Shown here in pieces: positions 14,910 to 22,005 of a DNA stretch of 22,760 nt. The stretch spans positions 1 to 22,760 of the IMG/VR virus record IMGVR_UViG_3300032322_000656; one strand, given 5' to 3'. The notes under the pieces are model-generated. The model worked only from the letters and a program-made list of their open reading frames with translations, was not told the DNA's origin and did no database searches. The position numbers and the translations under genes are program-made. The DNA is from a virus. How positions within the stretch are numbered: position 1 is the stretch's first letter; each line of letters opens with the position of its first letter.

Positions 14910-15212
14910 GTGAAAGGGCGAGCCGTGGCAGACGATCACCACGTCACGATTGACGGCAAGCGTTGGCTGTTGCGTTTCACCAAGCTGAAGGGTGACGCCG
15001 CTGGCTGGACGTTCTTTGACAACGCGAGCAAGCCCCGCATCCTGATTGACGAAAAGCTCCGTGGCGGGGCGCGGCTCGAGACGATCCTGCACGAGCTGCT
15101 CCACGCGAGTCTCGGGCCAAACATCAGCGAAGAGGCGATTACCGAGGCCGCGAAGGTGCAGCGGCGGGTGTTGACGATGCTCGGCTACAAGGAGGTGCCA
15201 GATGGCGGGTGA
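14910..15212 (+). CDS. Small zincin-like protein (HExxH)
   Basis: This 100-residue protein has the metalloprotease signature HELLH (61-65, in ETILHELLHASLG), followed by a Glu-rich helix (NISEEAITEAAKVQRRV) that could supply the third zinc ligand (E75, E76 or E79). The N-terminal part (VTIDGKRWLLRFTKLKGDAAGWTFFD) is a small beta sheet, and 'KPRILIDEKLRGGARLET' leads into the helix, the compact layout of a minigluzincin. It may cleave a phage or host protein; an inactive structural role cannot be excluded. The start is either GTG 14910 or GTG 14925, with no decisive ribosome site. The next gene starts 11 nt before its end. Confidence 0.72.
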   Translation: MKGRAVADDHHVTIDGKRWLLRFTKLKGDAAGWTFFDNASKPRILIDEKLRGGARLETILHELLHASLGPNISEEAITEAAKVQRRVLTMLGYKEVPDGG

Positions 15213-16203
15213 CGTTATCACCGATATGGCCCGGCGGCTCTGTAAGCGTCACCCAGACGCCCCGGCGAGGACGCTGGCCCGCCGCCTAGTGAAAGACTCC
15301 AAGGGGGCCATCACCATTGACCAGGCACGCAAGCGGATCGCTCGCCAGTTCGGCGTCCACGGCGTGAAGGCACGCAAAGAAGTGAAGCCCGCTGCACCTC
15401 GCCAGCCACGCCAAGCCGGCGAGCAACGCGCGATGCCAAAGAGTATGGCCGAAGCATGGACGCCGCATGTCATGGACGTGCTCGGGCCTGTCGGCATCAT
15501 CAGTGACGTGCATGTGCCGTATCACTCCGAGATTGCCGTGGCCGCTGCCATTGGCTACCTCAAAGAACAGGATCTGTCTGGCCTGCTGCTGAACGGCGAT
15601 ATCGCGGACTTCTACGCCATCTCGCGATACATGAAAGACCCAGCACAGCGGGACTTTAAGGGCGAGCTCGACGCCGTGCGGACGTTCATTGAATGGGTTC
15701 GCCACGAGTTCCCAGAGATCCCCATCGTGATGAAGGCCGGGAATCACGAGGAGCGGTGGACGCACTGGCTCTGGCAACACGCCGCAGAAATCAGCGACGA
15801 CCCGCGAATGAGCCTGGGGGCGTGGCTAGACTTGGACAAGCACAACGTGACGCTTGTGGAAGACCAGCGGCCCGTGATGCTCGGCAAGCTGCCCGTGCTG
15901 CATGGTCACGAACTTCCTCGAGGAATGGCCGCTCCGGTGAACGTCGCTCGAGGCGTGTTCTTGCGGACGGGTTCCAGTGGGCTAGTGGGCCATTCCCACC
16001 GCACCAGCAACCACGCCGAATCCGACATGTGGCACCACGAGACGGCATGTTGGAGCACCGGGTGCCTGTGCGATCTGCGGCCCGACTACGCCCGTATCAA
16101 TCGCTGGAACTGGGGCTTCGCAATGGCCACCGTCCACAAGGGTGGAGCATTCGACGTGCAGAACTATCGCGTGATGTCTGACGGCACGGTGCGGACTGCT
16201 TGA
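15202..16203 (+). CDS. Calcineurin-like metallophosphoesterase with N-terminal helical domain
   Basis: This 333-residue protein starts behind a textbook AAGGAGG (15189-15195). All calcineurin-type motifs are present in order: SDVH (D102, H104), NGDIAD (D133, D136), GNHE (N181, H182, E183), LHGH (H234) and VGHSH (263-266). It should therefore be an active two-metal phosphoesterase acting on a phosphodiester or phosphomonoester (nucleotide, nucleic acid or protein). Residues 1-55 form a separate helical unit (ARTLARRLVKDSKGAITIDQARKRIARQFG) that looks like a helix-turn-helix, then a basic linker (60-80), so the enzyme may be targeted to DNA. It overlaps the zincin gene by 11 nt. The substrate is unknown. 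Confidence 0.88.
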   Translation: MAGDVITDMARRLCKRHPDAPARTLARRLVKDSKGAITIDQARKRIARQFGVHGVKARKEVKPAAPRQPRQAGEQRAMPKSMAEAWTPHVMDVLGPVGIISDVHVPYHSEIAVAAAIGYLKEQDLSGLLLNGDIADFYAISRYMKDPAQRDFKGELDAVRTFIEWVRHEFPEIPIVMKAGNHEERWTHWLWQHAAEISDDPRMSLGAWLDLDKHNVTLVEDQRPVMLGKLPVLHGHELPRGMAAPVNVARGVFLRTGSSGLVGHSHRTSNHAESDMWHHETACWSTGCLCDLRPDYARINRWNWGFAMATVHKGGAFDVQNYRVMSDGTVRTA

Positions 16204-17063: not shown

Positions 17064-17966
17064 CTACCGCGGCAATCCGGGCCCGCCGTCTAGGGGCGGC
17101 AGCAGTTCGTGCGGCTTCGGCCCGCGTTCCGACATGCGGGGATCTAGGTACCACCGCTTCGTGACGGCAGGGCTGGCGTGGCCGGCGAATGCCACGGGAT
17201 CACCCCCTGCCCCAGCAATCTGGGAAATCGCGGTTCGGCGGATCTGATGCCAGGCCAGCCGCTTTCCGCTGAGCCCCGCCACCGCCATGATGGTCTTTAG
17301 CCTGTGGTAGACGTGTGTTGGTGCCTGCGGCCACGGCAGCAGTTCTGGGTGTCCTTGGGCCACCACTCGGTCCAGCCTGTCACAGAGGCTTTCTGAAAGC
17401 CCGTAGACGCGGCCTCGACGGCCGCCCTTCCTGGCGGCTGGTTGCACCGTCAGCGTTGGCCGGCGGTAGTCGGTGGCCGGCGTGGCCAATAGAGCCCCGA
17501 TTCGCTCGCCTGTCTCGTACGCCAGTTGGATGGCCGCAGAAAACCACTGAGACGCCGGGATCGTGCCTACGGCGCCCGCCGCCTGGCCGGCGGCTGCGAA
17601 TAGCCTCTGCATCTCCTCGACCGTCCAGGCGGTCGGTACGCGGTCTGGCAGCACGCTAGGCGGGCACGTCGGCATCCGTTCCAGCCCCGGCACCCGACGT
17701 TCCCACGCGAGTCGAGCCAAGGCGAGAAGCTGCGTCCGCTCCTTTTCCGCGGTGTATGGCGACCGGCTGGCGGCTCGATGCTCCAGATACCGGGCCAAAA
17801 GCAACTCGTCTAGGTGCTCGATGCCGGCGGCGTCCGCGATCCCCTCGGCCTCGAGCCAACGCGAGAACTGAATGAAGAGGTTGTCATAGAGCCGCACCGT
17901 CTGCTGGCTGCGGCCCCGCAGCTTGAGTGGACGGTAGGTGGTTTTGAAGAACTCGGAGAGCGTCAT
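17064..17966 (-). CDS. int: Tyrosine recombinase / phage integrase
   Basis: This 300-residue enzyme should integrate and, with an excisionase, excise the phage genome. Catalytic residues are all visible: R155 (ETGERIGALL), K180 (QPAARK, beta-hairpin), H240 and R243 (WHQIRRT), H263 (AGHAS) and Y273 (KRWYLDP). The N-terminal ~100 residues form the helical core-binding domain (SQQTVRLYDNLFIQFSRWL ... LLLARYLEHRAA). No separate arm-binding domain is obvious, so it may be a compact type of integrase. It is the only minus-strand gene in the window. Its 5' end faces the tRNA-like att candidate at 18021-18038 and the excisionase-like gene, the normal arrangement for a lysogeny module. Confidence 0.95.
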   Translation of the reverse strand: MTLSEFFKTTYRPLKLRGRSQQTVRLYDNLFIQFSRWLEAEGIADAAGIEHLDELLLARYLEHRAASRSPYTAEKERTQLLALARLAWERRVPGLERMPTCPPSVLPDRVPTAWTVEEMQRLFAAAGQAAGAVGTIPASQWFSAAIQLAYETGERIGALLATPATDYRRPTLTVQPAARKGGRRGRVYGLSESLCDRLDRVVAQGHPELLPWPQAPTHVYHRLKTIMAVAGLSGKRLAWHQIRRTAISQIAGAGGDPVAFAGHASPAVTKRWYLDPRMSERGPKPHELLPPLDGGPGLPR

Positions 17967-18020
17967 GGCGTCGGCCTTTGCGTGAACAGATTTCCACTAC
18001 TCGCGATAGTGTACAAACCC

Positions 18021-18038
18021 CGAATCCTGCCCCCGCCA
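18021..18038 (+). other. attP: Candidate attP core: tRNA 3'-end identity segment
   Basis: CGAATCCTGCCCCCGCCA reads as the last 18 nt of a tRNA gene without encoded CCA. CGAAT is T-loop positions 56-60, CCTGC the 3' T-stem strand, CCCCGCC the 3' acceptor strand and A the discriminator. The bases to the left do not provide a matching T-stem (GCAGG) or the TT of the T-loop, so no complete tRNA is encoded. This is what is expected of a phage att core that restores the 3' end of a host tRNA gene on integration. It lies about 55 nt from the integrase start. The acceptor partner would be GGCGGGG, seen for example in some tRNA-Tyr genes; the identity of the tRNA is a guess. Confidence 0.66.
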
Positions 18039-18144
18039 TTCTGATTTGGTCGTTTCGTCAGGTGTCTGCACCCTACTGCCGCGGCTAACGCCGGGGCAAC
18101 GAATGGGTTGAATGGGGTTCTGGACGCCGGTGCGTACTGTTGCT

Positions 18145-18173
18145 TTGACGCAACTTCAAAAGTCGCGTAGCAT
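18145..18173 (+). promoter_or_regulatory. Sigma70-like promoter for the HTH gene
   Basis: TTGACG (18145-18150), a 17-nt spacer, then TAGCAT (18168-18173). The -10 ends 7 nt before ATG 18181, so the transcript would begin at or next to the start codon, giving a leaderless mRNA if that ATG is used. Confidence 0.55.
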
Positions 18174-18180
18174 TTGGGTC

Positions 18181-18453
18181 ATGGTGGCAATGGCTGTCGA
18201 TTACGATTGGATCTCGGTGCAGCGGGCCGCAGAGCTGGCTGGATGCTCCGAGCAATACATCCGCCGTCTCGTGCTGGACAACATCAGCCCCGGCGACAGC
18301 CGCACGTCCAGCGGGCCGCTTGAAGGGTGGCGAGCCAACGGCAAGGCGTGGATGGTCAGCCACAAGTCGGTGCTCGAGTTCTCCAAGACCCTGACAACCA
18401 GGGCAAAGAAGAACGCCAGCAAGCGAACTGCGAAGAAGTCCCGGAAAAAATAG
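18181..18453 (+). CDS. Excisionase-like helix-turn-helix DNA-binding protein
   Basis: This protein has 90 residues from ATG 18181 (ATG 18190 is an alternative start). Residues 10-30 (WISVQRAAELAGCSEQYIRRL) form a MerR/excisionase-type helix-turn-helix, followed by a wing-like 'GWRANGKAWMVSHKSVLEF' (49-67), the standard layout of phage excisionase-family domains. The last 18 residues are strongly basic (TRAKKNASKRTAKKSRKK), probably for non-specific DNA contact. Being first in the rightward early operon and next to the att region and integrase, it is a good candidate for the recombination directionality factor or an early regulator. There is no Shine-Dalgarno upstream of the ATG. The longer frame from 18112 would begin before the promoter. 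Confidence 0.78.
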   Translation: MVAMAVDYDWISVQRAAELAGCSEQYIRRLVLDNISPGDSRTSSGPLEGWRANGKAWMVSHKSVLEFSKTLTTRAKKNASKRTAKKSRKK

Positions 18454-20610: not shown

Positions 20611-22005
20611 ATGCCGCAGGTTTACGAAGACATCATCGTTGACGCCGAGTTTGCCGCACTCATTCCGCCGCTGTCTGCCGAAGAGCGACAGCAGCTGGAA
20701 GACAACATCGTCGAGCACGGCGGTGCTCGAGATCCGCTTGTGGTGTGGGTTCCGAACGAATGGACACCGGACGGGTGCAAGAACCCGCTTGTGCATGACA
20801 GTCCTGATGGCATTGACGATGGTTCGGCTGACGAGACGCTCAAAGGCGTAGCGGTATGGGACGGAGATGACGGAGATACCTATTTTTCAGAAGACTGGCC
20901 CAGAACGCTGCTTGACGGCCACAACCGCTACGAAATCTGTACGCGGCTTGGGCTGCCGTTTGATATCGAAGAAATGCGGTTCAGTGACCGCAGCCACGCC
21001 GAAGAGTGGATCATCCGCAATCAGTTCGGCAGGCGGAATCTGTCGGCCTACGTGCGAACGCAACTGGCGTTGCGGCTTGAGGAGACGGTCGCGGCCAGGG
21101 CAAAGGCAAATCAAGTTCGCAAGCCTGCGGATTCTGTTTGTCAGAAATCTGACAAACAAACGATCGACACGAAAAAGGAAATCGCCAAGGTTGCGAACGT
21201 CTCGCATGACACGGTGGCGAAGGTCAAGAAGATCGACGCTGCCGAAAAGGCTGGCAAGGTTGACTCGGAGACTGTCGCAAAACTGCGAACTGGTGAGGTC
21301 TCGATTAACCGCGTCGTCCGCGACTTGAAGGATCAAGAGGCAGCAGCCAAACGGCAAGAACAGAAGGCCGCAGCGGTGGCAAAGCGGCAATCGGTTGACG
21401 GTCTGTACCTCGGCGACTTCCGCAAGATCGGAGACAAGATCCCGGACGCATCGGTAGACCTGATATTCACCGACCCGCCATACGACCGAAAGGCGATTGA
21501 ACTGTACGACGGACTTGGCGAGTTTGCGGCCAGGGTTCTTCGACCAGGCGGCAGCCTCATCGCATACGTCGGCCATATCCAACTTCCCGACGTGCTGACT
21601 GACCTTTCGCGTCATCTGCGCTACTGGTGGACGTGCGGGTGCTTCCACAGCGAGGCAAAGGCACGCATGACTGAATACGGCATCGTCGCAGGCTGGAAGC
21701 CGATCGTCTGGTTCGTGAAAGAAACTCGTGGCGACAAGCAGACGTTTATCACTGACGTTGTGACCGGCGCTCGAGAGAAGTCGCACCACGATTGGCAGCA
21801 GGCCGTTTCGGAGGCCCGGTACTTCATCGACCTTCTGACTCAGCAAGACGATTTCGTCGTCGATCCGTTCTGCGGAGGAGGGACGACGCCGGTTGCCTGC
21901 ATCGAGTCTGGCAGGAAGTGGGCGTCGTTTGAGATCGACGACGCCAACTTCGCCAACGCTTCGTCTCGAATCAAGGAGGTCATGGATGACCAGACCATTC
22001 AGTAA
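20611..22005 (+). CDS. ParB-HTH-DNA adenine methyltransferase fusion protein
   Basis: The 464-residue protein starts behind GGAGG (20599-20603). Residues 1-125 are a ParB/sulfiredoxin-like domain (LSAEERQQLEDNIVEHGGARDPLVVW; LLDGHNRYEIC at 100-110), with an acidic insertion at ~60-95. Residues 185-240 contain a helix-turn-helix (KKEIAKVANVSHDTVAKVKK). Residues 260-460 are a beta-class methyltransferase: motif IV DPPY (288-291), then 'KSHHDWQQAV', then the cofactor motif DPFCGGGTT (418-426). DPPY predicts N6-adenine methylation. Such fusions occur in phages and may modify their own DNA against restriction or mark replication. The gene contains a perfect palindrome at 21135-21158. Confidence 0.9.
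   Translation: MPQVYEDIIVDAEFAALIPPLSAEERQQLEDNIVEHGGARDPLVVWVPNEWTPDGCKNPLVHDSPDGIDDGSADETLKGVAVWDGDDGDTYFSEDWPRTLLDGHNRYEICTRLGLPFDIEEMRFSDRSHAEEWIIRNQFGRRNLSAYVRTQLALRLEETVAARAKANQVRKPADSVCQKSDKQTIDTKKEIAKVANVSHDTVAKVKKIDAAEKAGKVDSETVAKLRTGEVSINRVVRDLKDQEAAAKRQEQKAAAVAKRQSVDGLYLGDFRKIGDKIPDASVDLIFTDPPYDRKAIELYDGLGEFAARVLRPGGSLIAYVGHIQLPDVLTDLSRHLRYWWTCGCFHSEAKARMTEYGIVAGWKPIVWFVKETRGDKQTFITDVVTGAREKSHHDWQQAVSEARYFIDLLTQQDDFVVDPFCGGGTTPVACIESGRKWASFEIDDANFANASSRIKEVMDDQTIQ
21135..21158. repeat. Perfect palindrome inside the methyltransferase gene
   Basis: Arm TGTTTGTCAGA (21135-21145) and its exact reverse complement (21148-21158) are separated by AA. The site falls in the linker between the ParB and HTH parts of the protein (codons for VCQKSDKQ), where coding constraint is probably weak. 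It could be an operator, a recognition site for the encoded protein, or an mRNA hairpin. Confidence 0.7.

What the first reader, a model, noticed from the sequence alone, without database searches (positions are those of the whole stretch)
18021..18038. tRNA 3'-end segment beside the integrase: likely attP core
The 18 nt read exactly as T-loop position 56 to discriminator base 73 of a tRNA gene, with plausible T-stem and acceptor strands, yet the bases to the left cannot complete a tRNA. Phages that use tyrosine integrases commonly carry such a 3' fragment so that integration rebuilds the host tRNA. This gives a testable host tRNA: T-arm GCAGG/CCTGC and acceptor GGCGGGG/CCCCGCC, possibly tRNA-Tyr, with CCA not encoded.
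Basis: partly seen in the sequence, partly recalled or inferred. Interest (0 to 1): 0.6.

Follow-up and report, generated by a model that had tools for sequence, protein, structure and literature searches.

The report
Phage attachment site copying initiator tRNA
Next to its integrase gene this uncultivated phage carries the last 18 letters of a bacterial start tRNA (tRNA-fMet), the landing sequence that would let it insert into that essential gene and leave it intact; the mechanism is well known, but it points to the likely host phylum (Planctomycetota) and insertion site for this phage and about 90 related contigs.

Summary
The 18-mer CGAATCCTGCCCCCGCCA is at 18021-18038, once only, about 55 bp from the 5' end of a tyrosine integrase gene (17064-17966, minus strand). 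It is an attP core. All 41 IMG/VR loci whose integrase is at least 40% identical carry [CT]CCCCGCCA[CT]T within 500 bp upstream of int, in the same orientation, and nowhere else in 853 kb (both strands counted). A 17-mer scan of IMG/VR that did not use the integrase retrieved 48 contigs; 47 have this integrase family beside the motif.

In Planctomycetota the sequence ends the initiator tRNA-Met(CAT), with C1xC72 and A11-T24. The three T-stem variants of the phage cores (CCTGT, CCTGC, CCTAC) are the three found in host fMet genes; CCTAT is absent from both. Joining a host fMet to the window in silico rebuilds an intact tRNA-Met at one junction only. Host fMet genes carry real islands flanked by displaced 3' fragments, mostly from other integrase families.

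Not shown: an integrated prophage of this clade, the crossover position, or the window's own host. A new member of a known kind.

The parts
18021..18038 (+). attP core: 3' end of tRNA-fMet, positions 56-73
   Evidence: Exact match to fMet 3' ends of planctomycete genomes such as G416 and G405; family-wide position upstream of int
18030..18040 (+). constant 11-nt block [CT]CCCCGCCA[CT]T of the family core (positions 65-73 plus two bases of the tRNA gene's 3' trailer)
   Evidence: 42 copies in 41 loci, all upstream of int, none elsewhere
18022..18041 (+). imperfect dyad GAAT-N12-ATTC, proposed core-type integrase sites around the overlap region
   Evidence: Column counts over 54 distinct cores; role inferred
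17064..17966 (-). tyrosine integrase, 300 aa
18181..18453 (+). small HTH protein, probable excisionase; reading frame is open from 18112
   Evidence: Weak HTH_17 match, E 0.0011; homologue just past the core in 23 of 41 relatives

Best explanation
The 18 nt are the attP core of a temperate phage that integrates into the 3' end of the host initiator tRNA gene (tRNA-fMet, CAT). The phage tyrosine integrase pairs the core with the same sequence in the host gene and recombines them. The phage copy replaces the displaced 3' end, so the essential tRNA stays whole at one junction (next to the xis-like gene), and the old 3' fragment is left at the other, next to int. Shown: the sequence, its fixed position in an int-attP-xis-like module across the family, its identity with the fMet 3' end in Planctomycetota, matching sequence variants, and in-silico restoration of the tRNA. 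Inferred: that this integrase acts on it, that the host is a planctomycete, and that strand exchange lies at the T-stem/acceptor junction (about tRNA positions 63-69), between inverted GAAT and ATTC arms.
For: Core upstream of int in 41/41 loci at 40-81% integrase identity, 42 copies, none elsewhere in 853 kb. A 17-mer scan of IMG/VR not using the integrase: 47 of 48 contigs carry this int family beside the core. More distant integrases (28-31% identity) lack it, so the core follows the clade. Host genes: 30/30 loci in relatives of G002 are tRNA-Met(CAT), and 40 of 43 further loci, some from the same genomes (the other 3 are contig-edge or displaced fragments). T-stem variants match: phages GT 39, AC 7, GC 4, never AT among 50 integrases, with at least 9 changes on the tree; hosts CCTGT most, about 23 CCTGC, 5 CCTAC with compensating GTAGG, no CCTAT. 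Joining host G416 fMet to the window gives tRNA-Met in attB and attL and none in attP and attR. Int family in 76/397 genomes of the planctomycete order against 5/392 phylum-wide and 1/232 Solirubrobacterales. fMet carries real islands with displaced 3' fragments.
Against: No integrated prophage of this exact integrase clade with both junctions was found in the genomes searched. The closest genomic relative, G398:C36, has a core altered to CCCCGCTA and was not linked to its fMet. The islands mapped at fMet (G529, G649, G089, G229, G514) have integrases that do not match this family's profile, and the one that does match (G517) has int in the other orientation relative to the core. A few family members share little more than the 11-nt block with the tRNA.
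Confidence: 0.9

Rival explanations
1. attP core, but for tRNA-Tyr of another phylum (Actinomycetota, e.g. Solirubrobacterales).
For: tRNA-Tyr genes there end in exactly TTCGAATCCTGCCCCCGCCATTC.
Against: The integrase family is nearly absent from Solirubrobacterales (1/232, weak hit) and common in the planctomycete order (76/397). Most phage cores are CCTGT or CCTAC, which follow the planctomycete fMet alleles; the Actinomycetota tRNA-Tyr loci found are all CCTGC, although that search pattern could not have shown CCTAC.
Confidence: 0.05
2. A tRNA-derived remnant that is no longer used: a past integration left the fragment and the phage now integrates elsewhere or not at all.
For: No integrated copy of this clade was found.
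Against: Invariance of the block in integrases only 40% identical, constant geometry, and repeated switching only among host alleles point to selection on a working site.
Confidence: 0.04
3. Chance match or an unrelated regulatory element of the int promoter.
For: It lies in the int upstream region, and 18 nt is short.
Against: A regulatory site would not track host tRNA T-stem alleles, and distance to int varies from 64 to about 490 bp.
Confidence: 0.01

Closest known systems
tDNA-targeting tyrosine integrase systems (Islander genomic islands; PMC4383910)
   Same: attP holds a tDNA 3' fragment; integration restores the tDNA and leaves a displaced fragment. Their subsite at the T-stem/acceptor junction (J) fits the dyad centre here.
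   Different: Integrase clade and hosts are uncultivated; the target is the initiator tRNA; integrated junctions of this clade are not yet seen.
Mycobacteriophage Ms6 (PMC1762012)
   Same: attP core of 26 nt at the 3' end of a tRNA gene; identity of the core with attB governs which tRNA is used.
   Different: Ms6 targets tRNA-Ala and exchange is placed in the T-loop; here the constant block is the acceptor 3' strand and the T-loop is not always kept.
Bifidobacterium prophages in a tRNA-Met gene (PMC6109161)
   Same: Integration at the 3' end of a tRNA-Met gene.
   Different: 39-bp core in a different sequence context; I did not compare their integrases with this one, nor check whether that tRNA is the initiator.

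Membership tests
attP core of a tRNA-targeting temperate phage | Contains the 3' end of a host tRNA gene without the 5' part | tested here: met
attP core of a tRNA-targeting temperate phage | Lies beside an integrase gene, with phage genes on both sides | tested here: met
   int on one side, xis-like and RecT genes on the other; int-core-xis layout repeated in relatives
attP core of a tRNA-targeting temperate phage | Recombination with the host tRNA restores an intact tRNA at one junction | tested here: met
   in silico only: attL gives tRNA-Met, attR none
attP core of a tRNA-targeting temperate phage | Integrated prophage of this clade flanked by direct repeats of the core | tested here: inconclusive
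   none found for this clade; elements with other integrases do so at fMet
Tyrosine recombinase (phage integrase) | Catalytic R, K, H-x-x-R, H/W, Y | tested here: met
   R154, K179, R242, H262, Y272 invariant and H239 nearly so in 24 homologues; PHROG integrase E 6.9e-18; Pfam score slightly below gathering
Initiator tRNA (tRNA-fMet) as target | CAT anticodon, 1x72 mismatch, A11-T24 pair | tested here: met
   planctomycete genes read CGCGGGG...GAGC...GCTC...CCCCGCC with anticodon CAT and C1xC72
J-subsite integrase (exchange at the T-stem/acceptor junction) | Mapped crossover at that junction | not testable with these tools
   only inferred from the GAAT-N12-ATTC dyad and allele matching

The most novel reading that the evidence does not exclude
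A large clade of uncultivated Planctomycetota phages uses the essential initiator tRNA gene as its site, and each phage's crossover bases are repeatedly rewritten to match the T-stem allele of the local host, so that attP alone reports the host clade. One relative (L032) even carries two tandem cores with different alleles, which would let it use two host types.
Probability: 0.4. Interest if true: 0.55.

Novelty: new member of a known kind. Interest (0 to 1): 0.38.

Why it matters
It gives a concrete, testable host gene for a phage whose integrase has no match among about 50,000 GenBank phage records and for about 90 related IMG/VR contigs, in a phylum for which I found no described phage integration site in the papers searched. 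The short core is a usable host marker: it predicts which fMet allele the host carries. A planctomycete attP/int pair at a conserved tRNA could also serve as a site-specific integration tool.

Tried and rejected
tRNA-Tyr as target: the end exists in Actinomycetota but the integrase family does not follow it. Finding the prophage in named genomes: the integrase pattern scan of 84,980 species gave nothing; phylum, order and family searches gave only relatives. G517:C39 was examined as a possible junction: it is a displaced fMet 3' half beside a related integrase, but with int in the other orientation, so not this configuration. The fMet islands in G529, G649, G089, G229 and G514 were checked for this integrase: none match its profile. 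The integrase has no match among GenBank phage records. No convincing set of arm-type repeats was found in 17900-18200. Williams 2002 on tRNA sublocations is not in the library.

Full report
Observation. The 18-mer CGAATCCTGCCCCCGCCA is at 18021-18038 on the + strand and occurs once. ARAGORN finds no tRNA in the window. The window is an entire 22,760-base IMG/VR virus record with terminase, portal, major head, tape-measure, RecT and methyltransferase genes. The nearest gene is a tyrosine integrase on the minus strand, 17064-17966, whose start codon lies about 55 bp from the 18-mer.

It is a conserved part of an integration module. Integrase relatives in IMG/VR were examined upstream of int. 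In all 41 loci with at least 40% integrase identity, [CT]CCCCGCCA[CT]T occurs within 500 bp upstream of int in the same orientation: 42 copies, none elsewhere in 853 kb counted over both strands. The flanks are variable except for an extension AATCCT to the left (complete in 19 of 31 distinct sites, five of six bases in 5 more). Searching IMG/VR with ATCCTGTCCCCGCCATT alone, without the integrase, gave 48 contigs, 47 of which have this integrase family close by in the same geometry; in the last the motif lies near the end of the stored stretch. Over both sets the core starts 64-487 bp from int. Integrases at 28-31% identity lack the core. Just beyond the core, 23 of 41 loci encode a homologue of the window's small HTH protein, probably an excisionase. 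Phage genes therefore lie on both sides: this is attP, not a prophage end.

Which tRNA. A scan of 84,980 species for TTCRAATCCTGYCCCCGCCATTC gave eight loci: tRNA-Tyr in four Actinomycetota, tRNA-Met in a Lachnospiraceae genome and in two genomes labelled Planctomycetota, and a Myxococcus locus in which no tRNA was called. Around the planctomycete genome G002 (L080), 33 of 59 relatives have GGTTCRAATCCTGYCCCCGCCA, usually once, with no hit for the reversed control. All 30 loci examined are tRNA-Met(CAT), and 40 of 43 further loci, some from the same genomes, are too; the other three are contig-edge or displaced fragments. The genes have C1xC72 and A11-T24, features of initiator tRNAs (general knowledge), so this is tRNA-fMet. 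In hosts of the main order A73 is mostly followed by CTT or TTT, so CCA is not encoded, and the two bases after A73 in the phage cores ([CT]T) also match; some genomes elsewhere in the phylum show CCA (L270, L276).

Matching variants. tRNA positions 64-65 are GT, AC or GC in the phage cores and never AT: 39, 7 and 4 of 50 distinct integrases. Among fMet genes of the order, CCTGT dominates, about 23 copies are CCTGC and five are CCTAC, with none CCTAT; the CCTAC genes have the compensating 5' strand GTAGG. On the integrase tree the state changes at least nine times, so it is not simply inherited with the integrase. The simplest reading is that these bases lie in the overlap region and must match the host. 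The shuffle test shows only weak clustering of the states on the tree.

Mechanism. The consensus core is an inverted repeat GAAT-N12-ATTC centred between tRNA positions 66 and 67, next to the T-stem/acceptor junction. Islander describes three crossover subsites in tRNA genes, one being this junction (PMC4383910). I propose core-type arms at 18022-18025 and 18038-18041 and exchange near 18028-18034. This is inferred, not shown. In silico, joining the G416 fMet gene (which has the exact 18-mer) to the window gives tRNA-Met in attB and attL, and none in attP and attR.

Is fMet really used. Yes, by elements in Planctomycetota. In G529 an intact fMet and a displaced 3' fragment are 38 kb apart in direct orientation; G649 has two tandem islands; G089, G229 and G514 have single ones with fragments beginning in the T-arm. 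Their tRNA-proximal integrases are tyrosine recombinases but do not match this family's profile. G517:C39 carries a displaced fMet 3' half beside a related integrase (E 6.6e-67), with int oriented the other way, and another contig of that genome has the intact gene.

Host. The integrase profile hits 76 of 397 genomes in the planctomycete order, 5 of 392 phylum-wide and 1 of 232 Solirubrobacterales, the order whose tRNA-Tyr shares the 18-mer. The best cellular hit, G398:C36 (E 1.6e-103), is a phage-like contig with the same int, core and HTH-gene order, its core changed to TTGTCCCCGCTATTC. Planctomycetota is therefore the likely host phylum, but the window's own host is not identified.

Limits. 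No integrated copy of this clade with both junctions was found. Counts from the 17-mer scan are selected for that motif; the 41/41 figure comes from the integrase search and is not, though its 11-nt consensus was read off the same loci.

Novelty. tRNA-embedded attP cores are textbook, and prophages in tRNA-Met genes are known in Bifidobacterium (PMC6109161). What is new is this clade, its fMet target in Planctomycetota, and the allele matching.

Noticed in passing
L032:5863-5910 (same contig as L063): Two tandem attP cores 30 bp apart, one CCTGT and one CCTGC, matching two host fMet alleles; the only contig of the family with two. Could be real or an assembly artefact.
   Followed up: partly
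L278-L284, L161, L171 (G529:C12, G649:C52, G089:C43, G514:C49, G229:C57, G517): tRNA-fMet in Planctomycetota is an integration hot spot for several tyrosine integrase families, with displaced fragments starting in either the anticodon arm or the T-arm.
   Followed up: partly
L015:5716-5793, L019:1837-1911: Some relatives carry their own tRNA-Met(CAT) genes with a different acceptor stem, 0.13-2.6 kb past int.
   Followed up: no
window 20611-22005: One ORF combines a ParB-like region with an N6/N4 DNA methyltransferase domain.
   Followed up: no
window 15202-16203: Metallophosphoesterase of 333 aa, 78-82% identical in several relatives, far more conserved than the tail genes.
   Followed up: no
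L002-L042, between int start and core: A motif like TAGGTCACGC-TCCGTGC recurs near int in most relatives but is not clear in the window; possibly an int promoter or arm-type site.
   Followed up: no
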